The notes below the pieces were generated by a model. That model worked only from the letters and a program-made list of their open reading frames with translations. It made no database searches and had not been told where the DNA came from. From assembly GCF_024207115.1 (NCBI RefSeq), contig NZ_CP100128.1, positions 1,116,001 through 1,180,000 on the forward strand: a stretch of 64,000 bases of DNA, in the 5' to 3' direction. The translations under genes were made by a program, and so were the position numbers. Source of the stretch: Chromobacterium sp. IIBBL 290-4 (GTDB taxonomy: Bacteria > Pseudomonadota > Gammaproteobacteria > Burkholderiales > Chromobacteriaceae). This document shows positions 1,845-20,319 of the stretch, one piece after another. Each line of letters opens with the position of its first letter. Positions within the stretch are counted from its first letter, which is position 1.

Positions 1845-4556
1845 TCAAGCCAGACGGCCGTGGCACTGCTTGTACTTCATGCCGCTGCCGCAGGGGCAGG
1901 GATCGTTGCGGTTGACGCGCAGTCCTTGCGAGGCCAGCGCTTCCGGCGACAGCGGATTGTCGCTGTCGTCGCCCAGCGCGGAGCCCGGCTCGGCATGCTG
2001 CATTTCGAATTCCGGCAGTTCGTGCTGCTCCACCGCGTCGATATCCTCTTGGCCGCGGATCTGCACCGTCATCAGCACTTGCACCACGCTGCGCTTGATG
2101 CGCTCCAGCATGTCGGCGAACAGTTCGAAAGCCTCGCGTTTGTACTCCTGCTTCGGGTTCTTCTGCGCGTAGCCGCGCAGATGGATGCCCTGACGCAGGT
2201 GATCCATGGCGGCGAGGTGCTCGCGCCAGTGATTGTCCAGCATCTGCAGCACCAGGCTGCGCTCGAACTGGCGCATCACGCCGTCGCCGGCTTGCTCCAC
2301 CTTGGCTTGGTACGCCGCGGCGGCCAGTTCGACGATGCGGATGCGCACTTGTTCGATGTCGAGGTTGGGCTCGGCCTTGACCCACTCGGCCACCGGCGCC
2401 TCCAGCAGGAAGTCGGACGCCAGCGTCTTTTCCAGACCGGCCAGGTCCCACTGCTCTTCCATCGATTCCGGCGGCAGGTGCAGGTCGATCAGGTCGGAGA
2501 TCACGCCTTCGCGCATGTTCACCACCACGTCGGACACGTCCTCTTCCACCAGGATTTCATTGCGCTGCTGGTAGATCACCTTGCGCTGGTCGTTGGCGAC
2601 GTCGTCGTATTCCAGCAATTGCTTGCGGATGTCGAAGTTGCGGCCTTCCACCTTGCGCTGGGCGTTTTCGATGGAGCGGGTCACCCACGGATGCTCAATG
2701 GCCTCGCCTTCCGGCATCTTCAGGCGGTCCATGATGGCGGCGACGCGGTCGGAGGCGAAAATGCGCAGCAGCGGATCTTCCAGGCACAGGTAGAAGCGGG
2801 AGGAGCCCGGGTCGCCCTGGCGGCCGGAACGGCCGCGCAGCTGGTTGTCGATGCGGCGCGATTCATGGCGCTCGGTGCCGACGATGTGCAGGCCGCCGGC
2901 TTCCAGCACCGCGGCGTGCAGTTGTTTCCAATCGGCGCGGATCGCTTCGATCTTGGCCTGCTTGTCGGCGTCGGACAGGCTCTCATCCGTTTCCACCGCC
3001 TTGATTTCCGGCGCCGGGTTGCCGCCCAGCACGATGTCTGTGCCGCGGCCGGCCATATTGGTGGCCACGGTGATCATGCCCGGACGGCCGGCTTGCACCA
3101 CGATGTCCGCTTCGCGGGCATGTTCCTTGGCGTTCAGCACATTGTGCGGCAGCTTGGCTTCGGTCAACAGATGGGACACCAGCTCGGAGTTTTCGATGCT
3201 GGTGGTGCCCACCAGCACCGGCTGGCCGCGCTCCTGGCAATCCTGGATATCGGCCAGGATGGCGGCGTACTTTTCCTTGGCGGAGCGGTAGACCTTGTCC
3301 TGGGCGTCCCTGCGGATCATCGGCTTGTTGGTCGGGATCACCACGGTTTCCAGATTGTAGATGCTCTGGAATTCGTAGGCTTCGGTGTCGGCGGTGCCGG
3401 TCATGCCGGACAGCTTGCCGTACAGGCGGAAGTAATTCTGGAAGGTGATGGAGGCCAGCGTCTGGTTCTCGCGGTTGATCTCCACGCCTTCCTTGGCTTC
3501 CACAGCCTGGTGCAGGCCGTCGGACCAGCGGCGGCCGGACATCAAGCGGCCGGTGAATTCGTCGACGATAATCACCTCGCCGTCCTGCACCACGTAATGC
3601 TGGTCCTTGTGGAACAGCGCGTGGCCGCGCAGCGCGGCCATCAGGTGGTGCATCAGCGTGATGTTGGTGGCCGAGTACAGGCTGTCGCCGTCCTTCAGCA
3701 GGCCCAGCTGGGTGAGGATGTCCTCGCTGTGCTCGTGGCCGGCTTCGGACAACAGCACGGTGTGGGCCTTTTCGTCCACCCAGTAGTCGCCTTCGCCTTC
3801 TTCGGTTTCCTGGCGCTTCAGCAGCGGCGGCACCGCGTTCATGCGCTGGTACAGATCGATATTGTCTTCGGCCGGGCCGGAGATGATCAGCGGGGTGCGG
3901 GCCTCGTCGATCAGGATGGAGTCCACTTCGTCGACCACGGCGTAAGCGAGCTTGCGCTGCACCTTCTCGCCGACGCTGAACACCATATTGTCGCGCAGGT
4001 AGTCGAAGCCGAATTCGTTGTTGGTGCCGTAGGTGATGTCGCAGGCGTAAGCGGCTTGCTTCTCATCGTGCGGCATCTGGCTGAGGTTGGTGCCCACGCT
4101 CAGGCCGAGGAAGTTGTACAGCGGCGCCATGATGCTGGCGTCGCGGCTGACCAGGTAGTCGTTGACGGTCACCACATGCACGCCGTCGCCGGACAGCGCG
4201 TTCAGGTAAACGGCCAGCGTGGCGACCAGGGTCTTGCCCTCGCCCGTTTTCATTTCGGGAATCTTGCCCTGATGCAGCACCATGCCGCCGATCAGCTGCA
4301 CGTCGAAGTGGCGCATGCCCATCACGCGGCGCGAGGCCTCGCGGCAGACGGCGAACGCTTCCGGCAACAGGTCGTCCATCGATTCGCCCTTGCTGAGGCG
4401 ATCGCGGAATTCTTGGGTCTTGGCGGCCAGCGCCTCATCGGACAGAGCCTGCATCGCCGGCTCCAGCGCGTTGATGCTCAGCACCGTTTGGCGATATTGC
4501 TTCAGCAGACGGTCGTTGCGGCTGCCGAACACTTTCTTGAGTAGCGAAGAAATCAT
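1845..4556 (-). CDS. secA: SecA, preprotein translocase ATPase
   Basis: Motor ATPase that drives unfolded preproteins through SecYEG at the inner membrane. At 903 residues it is the usual length. Visible landmarks: Walker [10 protein letters not shown] (102-110), the DEAD-like [17 protein letters not shown] block near 210, [11 protein letters not shown] near 385, the NMAGRGTDI and [17 protein letters not shown] helicase motifs, and a C-terminal zinc-binding tail with C-P-C-x8-C-H spacing that binds SecB and phospholipid. The ATG at 4556 begins [12 protein letters not shown], the normal SecA N terminus; its Shine-Dalgarno is weak. Transcribed alone, with a strong terminator at 1790-1819 and a divergent phosphatase gene upstream. 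No secM-like upstream gene is present, so regulation differs from E. coli. Confidence 0.98.
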
Positions 4557-4642
4557 GTAGTCGAATCCAGAAACCAGCGGGCAGGAACGGTGTCCGCAAA
4601 AAATGCTGAAAAGTGTAGCACATTCCCAGCAAAGGTTATGGG

Positions 4643-4686
4643 GGCATGCATGCCACAGATCAAGGGCAGGCTAACAAAGCTTTGTT
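4643..4686. promoter_or_regulatory. Two perfect palindromes upstream of secA
   Basis: GGCATGCATGCC (4643-4654) and AACAAAGCTTTGTT (4673-4686) are perfect palindromes 18 bases apart in the secA/phoD divergent gap, about 90-130 bases upstream of secA. A TGTGCTACACT extended -10-like element on the minus strand lies closer to secA. They could be protein-binding sites, but no known regulator consensus was recognised. Confidence 0.35.
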
Positions 4687-4737
4687 GGATTTTGACTACG
4701 CCGGCGGCGATAACCATAGAGTAAACGCTCGATTCAA

Positions 4738-4766
4738 TTGACCGACCCATTCATGTTAATTAAATA
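4738..4766 (+). promoter_or_regulatory. Candidate sigma-70 promoter of the PhoD gene
   Basis: TTGACC (4738-4743), a 17-base spacer, then TAAATA (4761-4766). This places the start of transcription near 4773, about 50 bases before the ATG. A direct repeat of TCATTGGT (4768-4775 and 4781-4788, 13-base period) overlaps the predicted start and could be an operator. It does not match the Pho box consensus. Confidence 0.5.
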
Positions 4767-4824
4767 TTCATTGGTAATAATCATTGGTTTTATCACGCAA
4801 TAGTCAAAAAATCCTGGAGAAACG

Positions 4825-6876
4825 ATGGATAGGCGGCATTTTCTGAAGTGGGGCAGTTTCCTGACGGTTTCTGTCGCGACCGGCGGTTTGAGCGCCTGCG
4901 GGGGCGGCGGCGCGGGCGGCATCGCCTCGACCAGCACTGCGGGGCAGTCGCAACTGGAGGCCGGCAAAGTCTTCAATCTGGGCGTGGCGTCGGGCGACCC
5001 GCGTCCGGACAGCATCGTCCTGTGGACCCGCGTCGCCGGCGGCGACGGCGCCAATCCGCTGTCGGTCACCGTGCAGCTATCCGACAAGCCGGACTTCTCC
5101 AACCTGCTGGTCAACCAGACGCTCAGCGCCGATCCTAGCTGGGACTACACCGTGCGCCACAAGGTCACCGGCCTGAACAGCGCCAGCACTTACTACTATC
5201 GCTTCCTCAGCGGCGCAGGCAGCGCCAGCGGCCGCACCAAGACCGCGCCGGCCGCCGGCGCCCCGCTGTCGCAGCTGAAATTCGCCTACATCACCTGCCA
5301 GGACTGGAGCGTCAACCACTGGGGCGCTTTCGACGAAATCGCCCAGCTGGATCTGGACTTCGTGATGCATGTCGGCGATTACATCTATGAAACCGTCGGC
5401 GCCGGCTTCCAGACCGGCGGCAATGAAACCCGCCATCCGCCGCTGACCTTGCCCAACGGCACCAAGCGCGCCGACGGCGCCATCTACGCCACCACGCTGG
5501 CCGACTACCGCTACCTGTACAAGAGCTATCGCGCCGATCCGCGCATCCAGGCGGTGCACGCCAACTTCCCGGTCATTTCGATCTGGGACGACCACGAATT
5601 CTCCGACGACTGCTGGCAGGACCGCCAGGTGTACTACCCCGGCGAGGACGACACCCCCAATACGCCGCGCCGCCGCAGCGCCAGCCAGGCCTGGTTCGAA
5701 TACACGCCGGCCGATGTCCAGCTAGACCTGTCCAACCCCTCATTCCAGAACATCCAGATCTACCGCAGCTTCAGCTTCGGCAATCTGGCCACGCTGGTGA
5801 TGACCGACCAACGGCTGTACCGCGCCGACCACATCATCTCCGAAGACTCCGTGCCCAATACCGGCCTGGCCAATCTGGGCAGCCGCTATTTCGTGCCCAA
5901 GAACGCCCTGGCCACGGTGGAAGCCGCCAAGATCGCGGCCATGAGCGGCGATCTGCAAAATGTTTCCATTCTGGGCGACACCCAGCGCAACTGGTGGCAA
6001 CAGCAGATGCAAAGCGCCAACACTACCTGGAAGCTGTGGGGCAATGAGGTGTCGCTGCTGCGCATGGGCGTGGACGGCACCATGGCGGTGGCCAGCCTGT
6101 TGGCGCAAGGTTTGATCGCCGCCCTGGCGCAACAAGGCAGCAATCTGAGCGCCGCCCAGCAGCAACTGACCGGCACTTTCTACCAGGATCTGAAAGCGGC
6201 CGATGTCAGCGGCGCGACGCCGGTGCTGACTTACGCCAATACCCAAGGCCTGTTGTCCGTTCTGACCGGCGGAGCCATCAGCGCGCCGGTATTCAACGCC
6301 GCCCTGAAACCGACGCTGGACGCCAGCCTGCCGCCGTCCATGCTGCTGAACCAGTACATACTCAACGCCGACCAGTGGGATGGCTACAACGCCGAGCGCA
6401 AGGCGCTGATGGGCTTCCTGAAGAGCAAGCAGATCGGCAATGTGGTGGGCATCACCGGCGACATTCACGCCTTCTTCGCCGGCCCGGTCATGGACGACTT
6501 CGACGCCGCCAGCCCGACGCCGGTGATGGTGGATCTGGTGACCGCCGGCATCTCCAGCAATTCCTTCTTCAGCTACTTCAAGAACGTGGTGGACACCGTG
6601 CCGGCCTTCGCCAAGGCCGCGCCCTTGATCTACCAGACGGTGAATGGCCAGACGGTCAACACCTTCACCTCCACGCTGCAAACCTTCAACCCCTGGCTGC
6701 AATACGCCGATACCGACGCGCAAGGCTATGCGGTGGTGACGCTGACGCCGGGCAAACTCAGCTGCGTCTTCCACAAGGTCGGCAAGCTGGTGAACGGGGT
6801 GGCGCCGTCGCCGGCCACCGCCAGCACGCAGACGGTGGAAGTCGTCTCCGGCGCGCCGGCGGTCAACGTGCTGTAA
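4825..6876 (+). CDS. PhoD-family alkaline phosphatase/phosphodiesterase, Tat-exported
   Basis: A 683-residue metallophosphatase of the PhoD/PhoA-D group that releases phosphate from phosphomono- or diesters outside the cytoplasm. The N terminus has a twin-arginine signal (R3-R4-H-F-L-K) and a lipobox-like LSAC with Cys25 followed by glycines, so it may be a Tat-exported lipoprotein. The PhoD N-terminal beta domain begins NLGVASGDPRPDSIVLWTRV. The metal-site motifs HVGDYIYE (about 180), DDHEFSDD (about 254) and GDIHAF (about 545) follow. Start chosen at 4825 because TGGAGA (4815-4820) sits at good spacing. A GC-rich hairpin follows the stop. Single gene, divergent from secA. The exact substrate is not evident. 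Confidence 0.9.
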   Translation: MDRRHFLKWGSFLTVSVATGGLSACGGGGAGGIASTSTAGQSQLEAGKVFNLGVASGDPRPDSIVLWTRVAGGDGANPLSVTVQLSDKPDFSNLLVNQTLSADPSWDYTVRHKVTGLNSASTYYYRFLSGAGSASGRTKTAPAAGAPLSQLKFAYITCQDWSVNHWGAFDEIAQLDLDFVMHVGDYIYETVGAGFQTGGNETRHPPLTLPNGTKRADGAIYATTLADYRYLYKSYRADPRIQAVHANFPVISIWDDHEFSDDCWQDRQVYYPGEDDTPNTPRRRSASQAWFEYTPADVQLDLSNPSFQNIQIYRSFSFGNLATLVMTDQRLYRADHIISEDSVPNTGLANLGSRYFVPKNALATVEAAKIAAMSGDLQNVSILGDTQRNWWQQQMQSANTTWKLWGNEVSLLRMGVDGTMAVASLLAQGLIAALAQQGSNLSAAQQQLTGTFYQDLKAADVSGATPVLTYANTQGLLSVLTGGAISAPVFNAALKPTLDASLPPSMLLNQYILNADQWDGYNAERKALMGFLKSKQIGNVVGITGDIHAFFAGPVMDDFDAASPTPVMVDLVTAGISSNSFFSYFKNVVDTVPAFAKAAPLIYQTVNGQTVNTFTSTLQTFNPWLQYADTDAQGYAVVTLTPGKLSCVFHKVGKLVNGVAPSPATASTQTVEVVSGAPAVNVL

Positions 6877-6882
6877 GCCAAA

Positions 6883-6920
6883 CGCCCGCGCGCATTCATC
6901 GGGATGGGCGCGGGCGGTTT
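6883..6920 (+). terminator. Probable terminator after the PhoD gene
   Basis: CGCCCGCGC (6883-6891) can pair with GCGCGGGCG (6908-6916) across a 16-base loop, followed by a short GTTT. Stem is strong but the T-run is poor, so efficiency is uncertain. Confidence 0.55.
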
Positions 6921-7316
6921 CCCCGAAAACGGGATTGCGCGCAACGTCCATTGCGGGCCAAGACTCAACCAGTCTCGTTGCGACATTTAATTCCAAGAAT
7001 AAACCGATATTCCGCAGCAAACGCCAATGGTTCCGATTTCATTCCCAATAGTACATTTCGTCACAAAATACCCTTGTTTCCACTGCGTTTTTAATAATCG
7101 TTTTATGCCTTCTCTGGTAGCATCCATCCCCTAAATCGGGGCTCTGCGCCTATGCGCCGGCCTCCAGTTTTAAGCCGCTCGACGCCTCGCGCAGATAGCC
7201 TTTATCGTCTACGCGTCGACCCCGCTGCGGCAGCCTCGGCCTTCCGCGCCATTGTTGTCATAATACAAGCGGGCCCACCCCAGCCCGCATAATCGAATAG
7301 AACACGGAGAGGCCCG
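6921..7316. other. Long leader/intergenic region before the ABC transporter
   Basis: Nearly 400 bases without a supportable gene. The first part (about 6985-7110) is AT-richer than its surroundings. The region just before the permease holds a hairpin of GCGGGC with an eight-base spacer and GCCCGC near 7269-7288, and a clear Shine-Dalgarno (ACGGAGAGG) ahead of the ATG at 7317. It was compared by eye with yybP-ykoY and ykkC riboswitch patterns and no match was found. Confidence 0.4.
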
Positions 7317-9059
7317 ATGAACACCGCCGTCCGCCACTTCATGCCCGCCACCGCCCGGCGGCTGATACCCAACCGCTGGGACATGATCGCGTTTCCGCTG
7401 ATACTCGGCTTTTTGCTGATGGCCACCACCGGCATCCGCGACACCTGGGCGCCCATCACCGCGCTGCAAACCGCGCCGATCACGCTGGACCCCGGCAATC
7501 TGCCCGAATACGCCTTGCGCACCACGCTGCGCATGCTGGCCGCCATGATTGCCGCGCTGGTTTTCACGCTGATTTACGGCACGCTGGCGGCCAAGAGCCG
7601 CCGCGCCGGCCTGCTGCTGGTGCCGATACTGGACATCCTGCAATCGGTGCCGGTGCTGGGCTACATCTCCTTCACCGTCACCTTCTTCCTGGCGCTGTTT
7701 CCCGGCCGGGTGCTGGGCGCGGAATGCGCGGCCATCTTCGCCATCTTCACCAGCCAGGCCTGGAACATGACCTTCAGCTTCTACCAAAGCCTGCGCACCG
7801 TGCCGCGCGACTTGCAGGAAGTGTCGGTCAACCTCAGGCTCAGCGGCTGGCAAAAGTTCTGGAAGCTGGAAGTGCCCTACGCCATGCCCGGCATGATCTG
7901 GAACATGATGATGAGCATGTCCGGCGGCTGGTTCTTCGTGGTGGCGTCGGAAGCCATCACCGTCGGCGACAAGACCGTCACCCTGCCCGGCGTGGGCTCC
8001 TATCTGGCGCTGGCGATCCAGGACAAGAATCTGGCCGCGGTCGGCTGGGTGATCCTGACCATGTCCATCGTCATCCTGATCTACGATCAATTCCTGTTCC
8101 GCCCGCTGGTGGCCTGGGCCGACAAGTTCCGCCTGGAAGACACCATGAGCCAGGCCGCGCCGGAATCGTGGGTGCTGAATTTGATCCAGCGCACCCGCTT
8201 CATCCAGCAGCTGCTCAAGCCTTTCGGCAAGCTGCTGAAAAAAACCGCCCGCCTGAAACTCAATTATTTCAGCCTGCCCAAGGGCATACACTCCGAAGAG
8301 CACACGCCGATGTCGCGCGGCATCGACGTGCTGTGGTGGGCGCTGGTGACGCTGATCGCCATCGCCGCCGCCAGCAAGCTGGTGCACTTCATCGCCACCG
8401 AGGTCGGCGTGTGGGAAGTATTGCGCGTGTTAGGCCTGGGCCTGATCACGCTGGTGCGCGTCAGCCTGTTGATCGCCGTCGCCTCGGTGATCTGGGTGCC
8501 GCTGGGCGTGCTGATCGGCCTGCGCCCGGCGCTGGCTGAAAAAGTGCAGCCGCTGGCGCAGTTCCTGGCCGCCTTTCCGGCCAATCTGCTGTTTCCGGTA
8601 TTCGTGATCTTCATCGTCCACTACAAATTGAACCCGGACATCTGGCTGTCGCCGCTGATCGTCTTGGGCACGCAGTGGTACATCCTGTTCAACGTCATCG
8701 CCGGCGCCACCGCCTTCCCCAACGACTTCAAGGAAGCCGCCGCCAACTTCCGCATCCGCGGCTGGCAATGGTGGCGCAAGGTGATGCTGCCGGGCATCTT
8801 CCCCTACTACGTCACCGGCGCCATCACGGCATCGGGCGGCGCCTGGAACGCCAGCATCGTCTCCGAGTTCGTCTCCTGGGGCAATGACAAGCTGGCCGCC
8901 CACGGCCTGGGCGCCTACATCGCCCAAACCACCGCCGCCGGCGACTATCCCAAGATCCTGCTCGGCATCGCCGTGATGTCGCTGTTCGTCGTCCTGTTCA
9001 ACCGCTTGCTGTGGCGCCCGATGTACGCCATCGCCGAAAACAAACTCCGTCTCAACTAA
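7317..9059 (+). CDS. ABC transporter permease with two fused BPD domains (NitT/TauT-like)
   Basis: A 580-residue inner-membrane permease made of two tandem binding-protein-dependent transport domains (about 1-275 and 300-580), each with several membrane helices. Each half carries the EAA-type loop: LQEVSVNLRLSGWQKFWKLEVPYAMPG in the first (split here as the LRLSGWQKFWKLEVP core) and FKEAAANFRIRGWQWWRKVMLPG in the second. The order resembles nitrate, sulfonate and taurine permeases, but fusing both subunits in one chain is less usual. It is followed 13 bases later by its ATPase. No periplasmic binding protein lies nearby, so the substrate is unknown. Start from the ATG with ACGGAGAGG upstream. 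Confidence 0.88.
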   Translation: MNTAVRHFMPATARRLIPNRWDMIAFPLILGFLLMATTGIRDTWAPITALQTAPITLDPGNLPEYALRTTLRMLAAMIAALVFTLIYGTLAAKSRRAGLLLVPILDILQSVPVLGYISFTVTFFLALFPGRVLGAECAAIFAIFTSQAWNMTFSFYQSLRTVPRDLQEVSVNLRLSGWQKFWKLEVPYAMPGMIWNMMMSMSGGWFFVVASEAITVGDKTVTLPGVGSYLALAIQDKNLAAVGWVILTMSIVILIYDQFLFRPLVAWADKFRLEDTMSQAAPESWVLNLIQRTRFIQQLLKPFGKLLKKTARLKLNYFSLPKGIHSEEHTPMSRGIDVLWWALVTLIAIAAASKLVHFIATEVGVWEVLRVLGLGLITLVRVSLLIAVASVIWVPLGVLIGLRPALAEKVQPLAQFLAAFPANLLFPVFVIFIVHYKLNPDIWLSPLIVLGTQWYILFNVIAGATAFPNDFKEAAANFRIRGWQWWRKVMLPGIFPYYVTGAITASGGAWNASIVSEFVSWGNDKLAAHGLGAYIAQTTAAGDYPKILLGIAVMSLFVVLFNRLLWRPMYAIAENKLRLN

Positions 9060-10542: not shown

Positions 10543-10971
10543 ATGTCCGGACGCCCGCTCAACGACATCACCCGCCAGGATCAGACCTTGGCCCGCCTGA
10601 CCGCCGCCGCGCGCGAGCTGATGGCGCTGGACCGCGCCTTCAAGAAACTGATCCCCGCCGCCATGGCCGAGGCCTGCCGCGCCGTGCGCATCCGCGACGA
10701 CGAGCTGGTGCTGCATGCCGACAACGGCATCGTCGCAGCCCGGCTGCGCATGACCGCGCCCGGCCTGCTGCCGCAATTGGCCAAGCAGGGCTATATCGCC
10801 TCCAAGGTGCGGGTCAAGGTGGCGCTGCAAGTCGTCCGCCCCAAGAAGCCCAAGTCTTTGGCCATCAGCGAAGCCGCGCTGGACGGCATGGAACAGGCTG
10901 CCGCCAGCATAGACAACGCCGAAGTCCGCGCCGCGGTGGCGCGGCTGATCGCGCACCAACGACGCGGCTGA
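10543..10971 (+). CDS. DUF721/DciA-like protein
   Basis: A small basic soluble protein of 142 residues (147 if the in-frame ATG at 10528 is used). It matches the DUF721 pattern: an N-terminal helix, ARELMALDRAFKKLIPAAMAE, a central strand region ELVLHADNGIVAARLRMTAPGLL, then QGYIASKVRVKVA. In this family DciA assists loading of the replicative helicase DnaB. Shorter DUF721 members near secA in proteobacteria are less studied. The C terminus after about 105 is an Ala-rich helical tail. ATG 10543 is preferred because GGAAACC lies upstream, while 10528 would have almost no leader. Own promoter (10484-10512). Confidence 0.7.
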   Translation: MSGRPLNDITRQDQTLARLTAAARELMALDRAFKKLIPAAMAEACRAVRIRDDELVLHADNGIVAARLRMTAPGLLPQLAKQGYIASKVRVKVALQVVRPKKPKSLAISEAALDGMEQAAASIDNAEVRAAVARLIAHQRRG

Positions 10972-11070
10972 GCGACATGCCATACGCCTCTCCGCCTTCA
11001 TATCTTCACTGAAGGGGAGTAAAGTGGCGGCACTTTCCCATCCCGCTCCCATTGGATAGAGGACGCCGCC

Positions 11071-18879: not shown

Positions 18880-18888
18880 AATTTTGGA

Positions 18889-18916
18889 CGCCCCTCTCCG
18901 AAACAGGTGAGGGGCG
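18889..18916. terminator. Hairpin between convergent proA and protease gene
   Basis: CGCCCCTC (18889-18896) pairs with GAGGGGCG (18909-18916) over a 12-base loop. No clean T-run follows on the plus strand; the minus strand has TTTT a few bases beyond the stem. Probably a weak bidirectional terminator. Confidence 0.45.
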
Positions 18917-19777
18917 CTATATCCGGCCAATGACTGTGCTGAGTATCCCGGTTTCCAGCTTGTCTCGCACCCCGCTCCAGCCATGCAGGGCGGGTGCATC
19001 ATAAACAATGGGCAAATCCGCTTTTTTCTGCTGGTATAGCCGATTAAAAGCCCGGGCCAATCCCCAATCCTGTTCGCCCTCCAGCCCCTTCCAACCATCC
19101 GCCTCCAGCTGCGCGCGGGAGGGAATAAGCATCAAATATACCTTGCCATCATTGCGTCCCTTGTCTGGACGGTTACTCACTTTCAGTATTCCCATGCTTA
19201 TTCCCCGGTTTCGAAAAAAACTGCCTTCCGATAGCTGGAATTTTTTGAACTCTAATATACGGTGCTCAATCAGCGCAGCCGACAGAGGCGCGTCTTTGGA
19301 GTGAGCGACTACAAGATTTGCATCGACATCAAAACAGCTCAGGCATCCATGATAGCCAACCAGACCATGAATAACCTTACGTTGCCCTGCCAACAGCAAG
19401 TAATTCGCACATGAAGAGAAGCATAAACCTCTTACTTCCACATCCACTTTATGCGCAGCCATGACTCGAGCTATTTTCAAAGCCGAGTCGACATCTCCGC
19501 CCATCGAATTAAGACGAACAAGCTTGACTTGATCATCAAAATGGGAAACGAAATCAGCATAGGTGTTCTTCGCGGCAATCACTCCATTGAATGCCAAAAC
19601 TTCAGCACTGACTCTGACCCATCCACAGCCTGCCTGCTTCCAGCAATCCGCCTGACGGGAAGTATCCAACAATTGCTTTTCCTCTTGCCCTTGCCGCCAC
19701 CTTAGGCAAAACAAACAACACACCAGCACGCTTAAAGCAAACACGACCCATGCTGCAATATGGTGATATTTTCTCAT
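18917..19777 (-). CDS. Membrane-anchored ClpP/SppA-like serine protease (COG3904-type)
   Basis: A 286-residue protein with one N-terminal membrane helix (about 6-25, HHIAAWVVFALSVLVCCLFCL) and a predicted periplasmic domain. That domain has a ClpP/crotonase-type protease core: oxyanion strand LNSMGGDVDSALKIARVMA (90-107), the likely nucleophile in RGLCFSSCANYLLLAG (Ser121/122) and a candidate His143 in GYHGC. Mature-region cysteines (45, 51, 119, 123, 145, 148) could form disulfides. It lies 50 bases downstream of a small double-glycine-leader peptide gene in the same orientation, separated by a hairpin. A TTG at 19789 is an alternative start; neither has a good Shine-Dalgarno. Possible roles are peptide processing, quality control or immunity. 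No family function is established. Confidence 0.7.
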   Translation of the reverse strand: MRKYHHIAAWVVFALSVLVCCLFCLRWRQGQEEKQLLDTSRQADCWKQAGCGWVRVSAEVLAFNGVIAAKNTYADFVSHFDDQVKLVRLNSMGGDVDSALKIARVMAAHKVDVEVRGLCFSSCANYLLLAGQRKVIHGLVGYHGCLSCFDVDANLVVAHSKDAPLSAALIEHRILEFKKFQLSEGSFFRNRGISMGILKVSNRPDKGRNDGKVYLMLIPSRAQLEADGWKGLEGEQDWGLARAFNRLYQQKKADLPIVYDAPALHGWSGVRDKLETGILSTVIGRI

Positions 19778-19788
19778 TTCAAGTACCA

Positions 19789-19807
19789 AAGGGGCATATC
19801 GCCCCTT
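19789..19807 (-). promoter_or_regulatory. Intercistronic hairpin between peptide and protease genes
   Basis: AAGGGGC (19789-19795) pairs perfectly with GCCCCTT (19801-19807) over a five-base loop, just upstream of the protease start. There is no U-run long enough for full termination, so it may attenuate, protect the peptide mRNA or mask a G-rich ribosome site. Confidence 0.5.
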
Positions 19808-19827
19808 CGTAAAGTCAAATACAAAAG

Positions 19828-20019
19828 CTATTGAGCCTTGATTCGTCCAGTGGCTGTTCCACTAGCATCTATCTTCCCACCACCATTTCCCCAGCTGATG
19901 CTGAATCCACCACTCACGCTACCGCTGGCATCAATCTTAGTGGGCCTTGGTGTAGGGTATTTTTTCGTTGCAGCTCCGCCGCTCACACACTCTAACTCAG
20001 CCATGGTTAATGTTTGCAT
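19828..20019 (-). CDS. Small double-glycine-leader peptide (bacteriocin-like precursor)
   Basis: A 63-residue peptide. Residues 1-15 (MQTLTMAELECVSGG) form a textbook double-glycine leader: hydrophobic and acidic positions of the E-L-x-x-V-S-G-G type, as in class II bacteriocin and microcin precursors, cut by C39-type exporters. The predicted 48-residue core is Gly/Ser/Thr/Lys-rich and cationic, with a Pro-rich start (KKYPTPRPTK). It holds an internal repeat, KIDASGSVSGG (28-38) and KIDASGTATGR (49-59), around a W-G-N-GGG centre. There is no cysteine in the core. AAAGGA eight bases upstream supports the start. It is first in an apparent operon with a ClpP-like membrane protease. No C39 exporter is in the window. 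Function inferred from the leader only. Confidence 0.75.
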   Translation of the reverse strand: MQTLTMAELECVSGGAATKKYPTPRPTKIDASGSVSGGFSISWGNGGGKIDASGTATGRIKAQ

Positions 20020-20319
20020 TTTGAATATCCTTTTATATTATTGCGAATCAACATCTTGATTGAAAATACTCAGGCCTGAGTAAGAATCAAGCTAATCTTA
20101 AAAACAAAAAATGTCAATGTCATTTATTTTGTTACTTTTTACATTGTCCGACTGCTTATGGCATGTGCGATGCCCGTCAATATCTAGACCGACTTAATTG
20201 TTCTGCCGCGTACGATTACCGATCCACCTTACCTATCAGCAAGCCACTCCACTCCCAGACAGCCCCTCCATTTCACGCCATAATGCTAGGCTTTAGCCTC
20301 ACACGCTCGCCTGCAAAAA
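20020..20319. promoter_or_regulatory. AT-rich divergent control region with a 16-bp perfect palindrome
   Basis: About 300 bases separating the leftward peptide operon from the rightward cupin gene, markedly AT-rich between 20040 and 20150. A perfect palindrome TACTCAGG-CCTGAGTA lies at 20067-20082. On the minus strand it falls between a TTGATT (-35-like, 20083-20088 complement) and TATTTT (-10-like) separated by about 16 bases. An alternative pair, ATGACA / TAAGAT with a 17-base spacer, lies further upstream. The right-hand part contains CATAAT (20279-20284), a possible -10 for the cupin gene. Promoter placement is uncertain; the palindrome itself is certain. Confidence 0.5.

What the first reader, a model, noticed from the sequence alone, without database searches (positions are those of the whole stretch)
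18917..20019. Double-glycine-leader peptide paired with a membrane-anchored ClpP-like serine protease
Seen: a 63-residue peptide with a textbook MQTLTMAELECVSGG leader is followed on the same strand, 50 bases later, by a 286-residue protein with one membrane helix and a ClpP/SppA-type core (LNSMGGDV, SSCA). The locus is AT-rich and lies between housekeeping genes. Known: such leaders are normally cut by C39 exporters. Inference: this could be a self-contained secreted-peptide system in which the anchored protease matures, clears or gives immunity to the peptide. I know of no described pair of this kind.
Basis: partly seen in the sequence, partly recalled or inferred. Interest (0 to 1): 0.8.

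Follow-up and report, generated by a model that had tools for sequence, protein, structure and literature searches.

The report
Secreted-peptide gene with paired immunity-like protease
A short bacterial gene pair encodes a small peptide carrying an export-type leader and, beside it, a predicted membrane-anchored ClpP-type protease; the same pairing recurs in several distant groups of bacteria, often beside a peptide exporter, so the protease likely protects the producer from its own secreted peptide, a kind of self-protection that size-limited microcin searches would often overlook.

Summary
Peptide 19828-20019(-), with a 15-residue double-glycine leader, and protease 18917-19777(-), 50 nt apart, sit in a 1.4-kb AT-rich insert between proA and a cupin gene. 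That interval is 116-148 bp in 8 of 17 congener loci; the protease has no match in 18 congeners. The pairing recurs: 22 of 169 COG3904-like protease ORFs against 9 of 645 control genes have an adjacent leader-bearing ORF, 19 of the 22 genuine by eye (window included), in Beta-, Gamma- and Alphaproteobacteria. Eight operons checked join peptide(s), protease, HlyD and C39 exporter, with no other small membrane ORF between them; one Pantoea operon has one after the exporter. One origin of the pairing is rejected. Relatives' peptides evolve as coding genes. Ser121 and His143 are invariant in 44 of 44; the predicted fold is ClpP-like. I read it as a microcin-like peptide with a proteolytic immunity protein, exported in trans by a C39 system elsewhere in the genome. 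Export, cleavage, immunity and antibacterial action are inferred. Ten paper searches showed no description. 'Self-contained' is not supported; immunity or clearing is the best-supported option.

The parts
19828..20019 (-). 63-aa double-glycine-leader peptide gene
   Evidence: open frame with ATG and AAGGA 8 nt upstream; the Pseudogulbenkiania relative shares leader residues and the IDASGT[VA]T motif
19975..20019 (-). 15-residue leader MQTLTMAELECVSGG
   Evidence: sequence; M1, L4, E8, G14, G15 invariant in 10 aligned paired peptides
19828..19974 (-). 48-residue core plus stop, with two KIDASG[ST] repeats, Gly/Ser/Thr-rich
   Evidence: sequence; the predicted structure has no confident fold (pLDDT 48)
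19787..19809 (-). intercistronic hairpin AAGGGGC-GATAT-GCCCCTT just after the peptide stop
   Evidence: z -3.27; a hairpin with z of -2 or lower follows the last peptide gene at 8 of 15 boundaries folded
18917..19777 (-). 286-aa predicted membrane-anchored ClpP-like (COG3904-type by recall) serine protease
19697..19753 (-). predicted N-terminal membrane helix (about residues 9-27)
   Evidence: hydropathy, helix 3-37 in the model
19496..19501 (-). Gly93-Gly94, ClpP-type oxyanion-region glycines (role by analogy)
   Evidence: invariant in 44 of 44
19415..19417 (-). Ser121, predicted nucleophile in the C-x-S-x-C-x-N-Y motif
   Evidence: invariant in 44 of 44
19349..19351 (-). His143, predicted general base
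   Evidence: invariant in 44 of 44
18880..20319 (.). insert between proA and the cupin gene, holding both genes
   Evidence: 1.4 kb here; 116-148 bp in 8 of 17 congener loci; low GC

Best explanation
This AT-rich two-gene cassette encodes a 63-residue peptide with a double-glycine leader and, 50 bases downstream, a predicted membrane-anchored ClpP-fold serine protease that likely acts as the peptide's immunity protein by cutting it at the periplasmic face. Proposed steps, all inferred: the precursor is made in excess of the protease (a hairpin after the peptide stop would protect or terminate the short message); a C39 exporter encoded elsewhere in the genome removes the leader after Gly-Gly and secretes the 48-residue core; peptide that re-enters or stalls in the periplasm is cleaved by the anchored Ser121/His143 protease; the peptide acts on competing cells that lack the protease. 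In many relatives the same two genes sit in one operon with their own HlyD/C39 exporter, so the window copy looks like a mobile peptide-immunity cassette that relies on an exporter in trans.
Against: No activity of peptide or protease is shown by any search. One Pantoea operon (L176) has, right after the exporter gene, an annotated 61-aa ORF with two hydrophobic stretches that would do as a conventional immunity protein; its counterpart in L075 is broken while peptide, protease and exporter genes are present there. The decay pattern is biased, because loci were found through the protease, and L148's peptide may be a short variant; Vibrio plantisponsor L165 shows the reverse (exporter whole, protease cut to 71 aa). 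The second Asaia protease is short (187 against 257 aa). Most proteases of the family stand alone, so the family has another role too. No acid is invariant at the ClpP Asp position; Glu184 is acidic in 89% of rows but may be structural. The window peptide has no close homologue and lacks the Cys pair of several relatives. Massilia has three alike peptides for one protease, which also suits maturation. A CAAX protease in a bacteriocin cluster was found not to give immunity (PMC9298176).
Confidence: 0.47

Rival explanations
1. The protease is a maturation enzyme: after C39 has removed the leader, it would trim or cut the exported core into the active product; immunity lies elsewhere.
For: Protease and peptide share operons across distant bacteria; one protease serves three peptides in Massilia; one Pantoea operon has a separate small membrane ORF after the exporter; a bacteriocin-cluster protease, SilX, is needed for production and not for immunity (PMC9298176).
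Against: The C39 exporter would already do leader removal in these operons. No separate immunity-like ORF is seen between the genes of the 8 operons checked. The protease stays open where the peptide is degenerate in 5 loci (biased sample).
Confidence: 0.24
2. The peptide is not a bacteriocin but a secreted signal or surface peptide, and the protease clears or terminates it.
For: Cores are Gly/Ser/Thr-rich; no family in Pfam (window peptide) or NCBIfam (window and five relatives' peptides) reaches its cut-off; no antibacterial evidence.
Against: The gene set is that of class II microcins (peptide, MFP, C39 PCAT, one adjacent envelope protein). Regulator or receptor genes were not searched for with models, so they are not excluded.
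Confidence: 0.15
3. The window copy is a decaying remnant of a larger operon that has lost its exporter; it is kept, if at all, only as an orphan immunity gene.
For: No exporter beside it, unlike its relative in the same family; matched in one of 19 genomes of the genus; low GC and a variable slot.
Against: Both frames are intact, with a ribosome-binding site and hairpin; two C39 exporters are available in trans.
Confidence: 0.2
4. The adjacency is coincidental: a stand-alone envelope protease next to a spurious small ORF.
For: Most proteases of the family are solo in the loci examined; the window peptide has no close homologue.
Against: as above; all 7 plasmid records that match the Pantoea or Klebsiella peptide hold it beside the protease.
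Confidence: 0.03

Closest known systems
Class II microcins (microcin V type; gene names CvaC, Cvi, CvaA, CvaB recalled)
   Same: double-glycine leader, HlyD-type MFP and C39 PCAT in relatives' operons, one adjacent gene expected to protect the producer (definition read in PMC9746304 passages)
   Different: the adjacent gene is a predicted ClpP-fold protease instead of a small membrane protein of 51-216 aa; no library match over cut-off for the peptides scanned; exporter not local in the window
COG3904-type ClpP-like proteins
   Same: C-x-S-x-C-x-N-Y and HG motifs, exported or anchored, ClpP fold
   Different: most members seen are solo genes; here coupled to a leader peptide
SppA of Bacillus subtilis
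   Same: membrane protease of the ClpP/SppA fold class; its loss raises sensitivity to nisin, subtilin and LP9 (PMC7568657 passages)
   Different: stress-regulon protease in an operon with its inhibitor SppI, not with a peptide gene; SppA's Ser/Lys mechanism is recalled, here Ser and His are invariant and no Lys is
Nisin resistance protein NSR
   Same: N-terminal membrane helix plus protease that inactivates a peptide antibiotic by cutting it (PMC4828448 passages)
   Different: carried by non-producers and specific for nisin; another protease family (S41 is a term in that paper; that passage was not shown to me)
CAAX/Abi bacteriocin-immunity proteases
   Same: proteases found in bacteriocin clusters and linked to immunity (PMC9298176 abstract and passages)
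   Different: multi-pass membrane proteases with EExxxR and FxxxH motifs; not ClpP fold

Membership tests
Class II microcin system | small precursor with a leader ending in GG or GA | tested here: met
   sequence; leader pattern shared with the peptides beside 18 other protease ORFs
Class II microcin system | C39 PCAT and MFP for export | tested here: inconclusive
   not at the window locus; two C39 exporters with catalytic-Cys motif and HlyD-like ORF (by eye) elsewhere in the genome; local in the 8 operons checked; no link to this peptide shown
Class II microcin system | adjacent small (51-216 aa) membrane immunity protein | tested here: not met
   no such ORF in the 1.4-kb insert by eye; the adjacent gene is a 286-aa predicted protease. 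Among relatives' operons one Pantoea operon has a candidate after the exporter
Class II microcin system | antibacterial activity | not testable with these tools
   needs bench work
ClpP family (S14) | ClpP fold | tested here: met
ClpP family (S14) | Ser-His-Asp triad | tested here: inconclusive
   Ser121 and His143 invariant in 44 of 44; no invariant acid, Glu184 acidic in 89%
ClpP family (S14) | score over Pfam PF00574 cut-off | tested here: not met
   18.5 bits against 20.2; of three relatives scanned only Pseudogulbenkiania passes, 21.0
SppA (S49) | Ser/Lys catalytic pair (recalled) | tested here: not met
   no Lys among the invariant columns of 44 rows; His143 invariant instead
CAAX/Abi immunity protease | multi-pass membrane protein with EExxxR and FxxxH motifs | tested here: not met
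   one N-terminal helix and a ClpP-like domain; motifs as given in PMC9298176
Known anti-phage defence proteins (PADLOC) | match to a PADLOC model | tested here: not met
   no match at E 0.01 for either protein

The most novel reading that the evidence does not exclude
A widespread class of Gram-negative secreted-peptide weapons whose self-protection is proteolytic: each peptide is paired with an exported ClpP-fold protease that destroys it at the producer's own envelope. The pairing arose or was reshuffled several times, moves as a two-gene cassette, and can outlive its peptide as a free resistance gene.
Probability: 0.38. Interest if true: 0.87.

Novelty: new variant of a known kind. Interest (0 to 1): 0.72.

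Why it matters
Verified class II microcin immunity proteins are described as 51-216 aa, usually inner-membrane proteins, and the cinful pipeline screens candidates up to 250 aa while its authors say larger ones may exist (PMC9746304 passages). Of the 19 paired proteases, 12 are longer than 250 aa, so such a filter would drop most of them. If true, it gives a function to part of a large uncharacterised ClpP-like family, offers a search handle for a set of microcin-like peptides, and shows an enzymatic route to self-protection that could spread as resistance.

Tried and rejected
The single-sequence scan of genome contigs found nothing; the profile scan A4 worked. Viral contigs: 16 relatives, none with an adjacent leader peptide (the one pattern match, in L089, lies far from the protease), so phage carriage was dropped. 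E. coli: no DNA match to the Klebsiella pair in 20,395 records. Window cassette in plasmids by DNA: none. The peptide's beta-hairpin look (Thr/Ser strands around a KDG turn, Cys at the ends in several relatives) was not supported by prediction (pLDDT 48) and I do not claim it. Peptide hits in six genomes of the family at E 0.03-0.1 look like chance and were not used; a peptide hit in G928 had no protease or exporter in the 3.2 kb held and no leader. tRNA-guided insertion and flanking repeats: none found. Promoter-like sites are no more than suggestive.

Rows dropped and caveats: the 169 protease ORFs include some places fetched twice by different searches and close kin (L075/L176). Three of the 22 leader hits (L141, L169 twice) and L131 were judged chance by eye. 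Of the 19 kept, L106, L127 and L148 have a leader but a broken, fused or short peptide. The first pattern (17 of 169 against 6 of 645) missed L046, L048, L070 and the second L122 peptide, found. HlyD and C39 profiles were seeded with L038 (same place as L095), L074, L075, L039 and L040, so L095's match is by construction; L074 and L075 are annotated so in their records; the other operons' matches are independent. Tree rows: 150 (at least 4 changes forced) and 60; truncated or redundant proteases were left out, several paired rows have long branches, the program warned of two joins of long branches, the bootstrap had not settled, and three rows joined the group after the first tree was seen. 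AlphaFold used 44 (protease) and 10 (peptide) sequences. L070 is outside the 44-row alignment; by eye it keeps Ser and His with Leu for Tyr126. Literature lists were capped (for example 15 of 187 papers listed, 12 of 1,332, 10 of 664, 12 of 29).

Full report
WHAT IS THERE. On the minus strand, a 63-codon gene (19828-20019) encodes MQTLTMAELECVSGG followed by a 48-residue Gly/Ser/Thr-rich core that holds two KIDASG[ST] repeats. Fifty nt downstream lies a 286-codon gene (18917-19777) with one N-terminal hydrophobic helix and a ClpP-like core. An AAGGA lies 8 nt before the peptide ATG (read by eye). A stable hairpin (19787-19809, z -3.27) sits between the genes. GC falls to 0.42-0.49 in windows over the pair, against mostly 0.64-0.70 around it.

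ACQUISITION. The genome is one contig of 5.12 Mb. The protease search matched the window genome only, 0 of 18 congeners at E 0.001. The cupin gene was found in 18 of 19 genomes of the genus, own included. Of the 17 relatives' loci, 8 have 116-148 bp between proA and the cupin gene against about 1.44 kb here, three have 492-1231 bp, and in six proA is not within the 1.5 kb held. The longer intervals hold other ORFs, not this pair. The cassette therefore sits in a variable slot and was most likely gained by this lineage.

THE PAIR ELSEWHERE. A relative with the same gene order in the same family, Pseudogulbenkiania (L007/L095), has peptide, protease, HlyD, C39 exporter; its peptide carries IDASGTVT near its end, like the window's IDASGTAT. 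A profile scan returned 80 loci, the best of 141 confirmed. With plasmid, viral and whole-genome loci added, 169 protease ORFs were examined: 22 have a leader-bearing ORF within 400 nt on the same strand, against 9 of 645 other genes of at least 200 codons in the same loci (Fisher p 1e-9). By eye 19 of the 22 are genuine, the window's own among them; 3 of the 9 controls are pair peptides themselves. Eight operons (L074, L075, L095, L100, L103, L106, L109, L115) hold peptide(s), protease, HlyD and C39, and no ORF between these genes looks like a small membrane immunity protein; in L106 the peptide frame itself is broken. After the exporter gene the Pantoea operon L176 (kin of L075) has an annotated 61-aa ORF with two hydrophobic stretches, broken in L075: a possible conventional immunity gene that I count against my reading. 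Enterobacteria have protease then peptide; Pseudogulbenkiania, Massilia, Dyella, Stenotrophomonas and the window have peptide then protease. A hairpin with z of -2 or lower follows the last peptide gene at 8 of 15 boundaries folded: window, L095, L115, L122, L047, L100 (z -3.2 to -5.0), L103 and L075 (-2.3, -2.5); weak in L074 and L109; not in L164 (two), L046, L048, L070. It would favour peptide over downstream product (inferred).

RECURRENCE AND SELECTION. On a 60-row tree the 17 paired rows need 8 changes, at least 5 forced by supported branches; holding them as one clade costs 235 log-likelihood units, p-AU 9e-40. Long branches and a group completed after the first tree weaken the exact figures. 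Peptides in relatives are coding: Klebsiella-Enterobacter dN 0.062, dS 1.73, more constrained than their protease (0.137, 0.833); Pantoea-Erwinia 0.151, 0.848 over 57 codons; Massilia copies 0.156, 0.366 and 0.009, 0.102; L047-L048 0.573, 1.22. Asaia carries two pairs in tandem; the peptide C-termini have diverged (dN 0.245, dS 0.276), and the proteases are 61% identical over 181 residues, the second one shorter (187 aa).

DECAY. In L106 (frame-broken), L127 (tail replaced), L147 (only the first residues alike), L148 (short) and L178 (cut to 46 codons beside an IS3-family transposase) the peptide is degenerate or short while the protease stays open; in L127, L147, L148 and L178 no exporter is in view. 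This fits an immunity gene that keeps its use without the peptide. The sample was gathered by protease, so the count is biased; Vibrio plantisponsor L165 shows the reverse. Seven of seven plasmid records that match the Pantoea or Klebsiella peptide, one of them over half its length only, have it beside the protease.

EXPORT. The window locus has no exporter. The genome has five C39-domain hits; two (L001, L002) carry the catalytic-Cys motif and an HlyD-like partner, and sit next to MvdD-type ATP-grasp genes, as in graspetide clusters. Nine of nine genomes with pair loci have a C39 hit, though 8 of 14 control genomes do as well, so this is a weak test.

MECHANISM. Shown: gene pair, recurrence, coding selection in relatives, invariant Ser/His, predicted fold, operon content. 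Inferred: C39 export in trans, periplasmic cleavage, immunity, antibacterial action. Immunity is preferred over maturation because C39 would already remove the leader, because the protease is the only extra gene between the others in the 8 operons, because of the tandem pairs, and because of the decay pattern. SppA and NSR show that membrane proteases can protect against peptide antibiotics (PMC7568657 and PMC4828448, passages). SilX shows that a bacteriocin-cluster protease may serve production instead (PMC9298176, abstract and passages). After checking, the Pantoea ORF moved my odds from 0.50 to 0.47 (novel case 0.40 to 0.38, maturation 0.22 to 0.24).

PRIOR ART. Searches showed no description of the pairing in the listings; several lists were capped, and subscription papers and preprints are not held. 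Passages of four microcin papers (PMC9746304, PMC13174018, PMC13101503, PMC11494933) speak of immunity proteins, described in three of them as small or as membrane proteins; in the last three papers the word protease does not occur, and in the first the passage shown with it concerns the C39 domain (not all its passages were shown).

Noticed in passing
L039 (G000:C1:1433000-1450000) and L040 (G000:C1:512000-529000): Two graspetide-like clusters in the window genome: MvdD-domain ATP-grasp genes, double-glycine precursors with TTLAVGEEG-type repeats, HlyD-like and C39 exporter genes. L040 also has a FISGG-leader peptide (10663-11043, minus strand).
   Followed up: partly
window 18880-20319 and congener loci L191, L192, L195-L201, L208: The proA-cupin interval is a variable slot: 116-148 bp in 8 of 17 congener loci, longer in others, with unrelated ORFs such as a retropepsin-like protein or an NAD-dependent reductase-like protein (names by eye).
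   Followed up: partly
L176 (Pantoea dispersa plasmid pJL.02bL) 9330-9515: An annotated 61-aa ORF with two hydrophobic stretches follows the C39 exporter gene; its counterpart in L075 is broken.
   Followed up: partly
L164 (Asaia bogorensis MAG) 5418-7409: Tandem peptide-protease-peptide-protease; leaders and first part of the core nearly identical, peptide C-termini diverged; second protease short.
   Followed up: partly
L165 (Vibrio plantisponsor) 2468-6270: HlyD and C39 exporter followed by a protease cut to 71 codons; other double-glycine peptides lie upstream of the exporter.
   Followed up: no
L047 (G128) 663-929 and 2493-2756, minus strand: Near-identical HlyD-like N-terminal fragments (by eye) flank the peptide-protease pair on both sides, as if the pair had been copied into an exporter operon by recombination.
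   Followed up: no
L178 (Klebsiella pneumoniae plasmid p298-2) 5013-7083: Protease open; peptide cut to 46 codons beside an IS3-family transposase; no exporter annotated in the stretch. Described only.
   Followed up: no
L077-L092 (viral contigs): Related ClpP-like proteases occur on phage-like contigs without adjacent leader peptides; role unknown.
   Followed up: no
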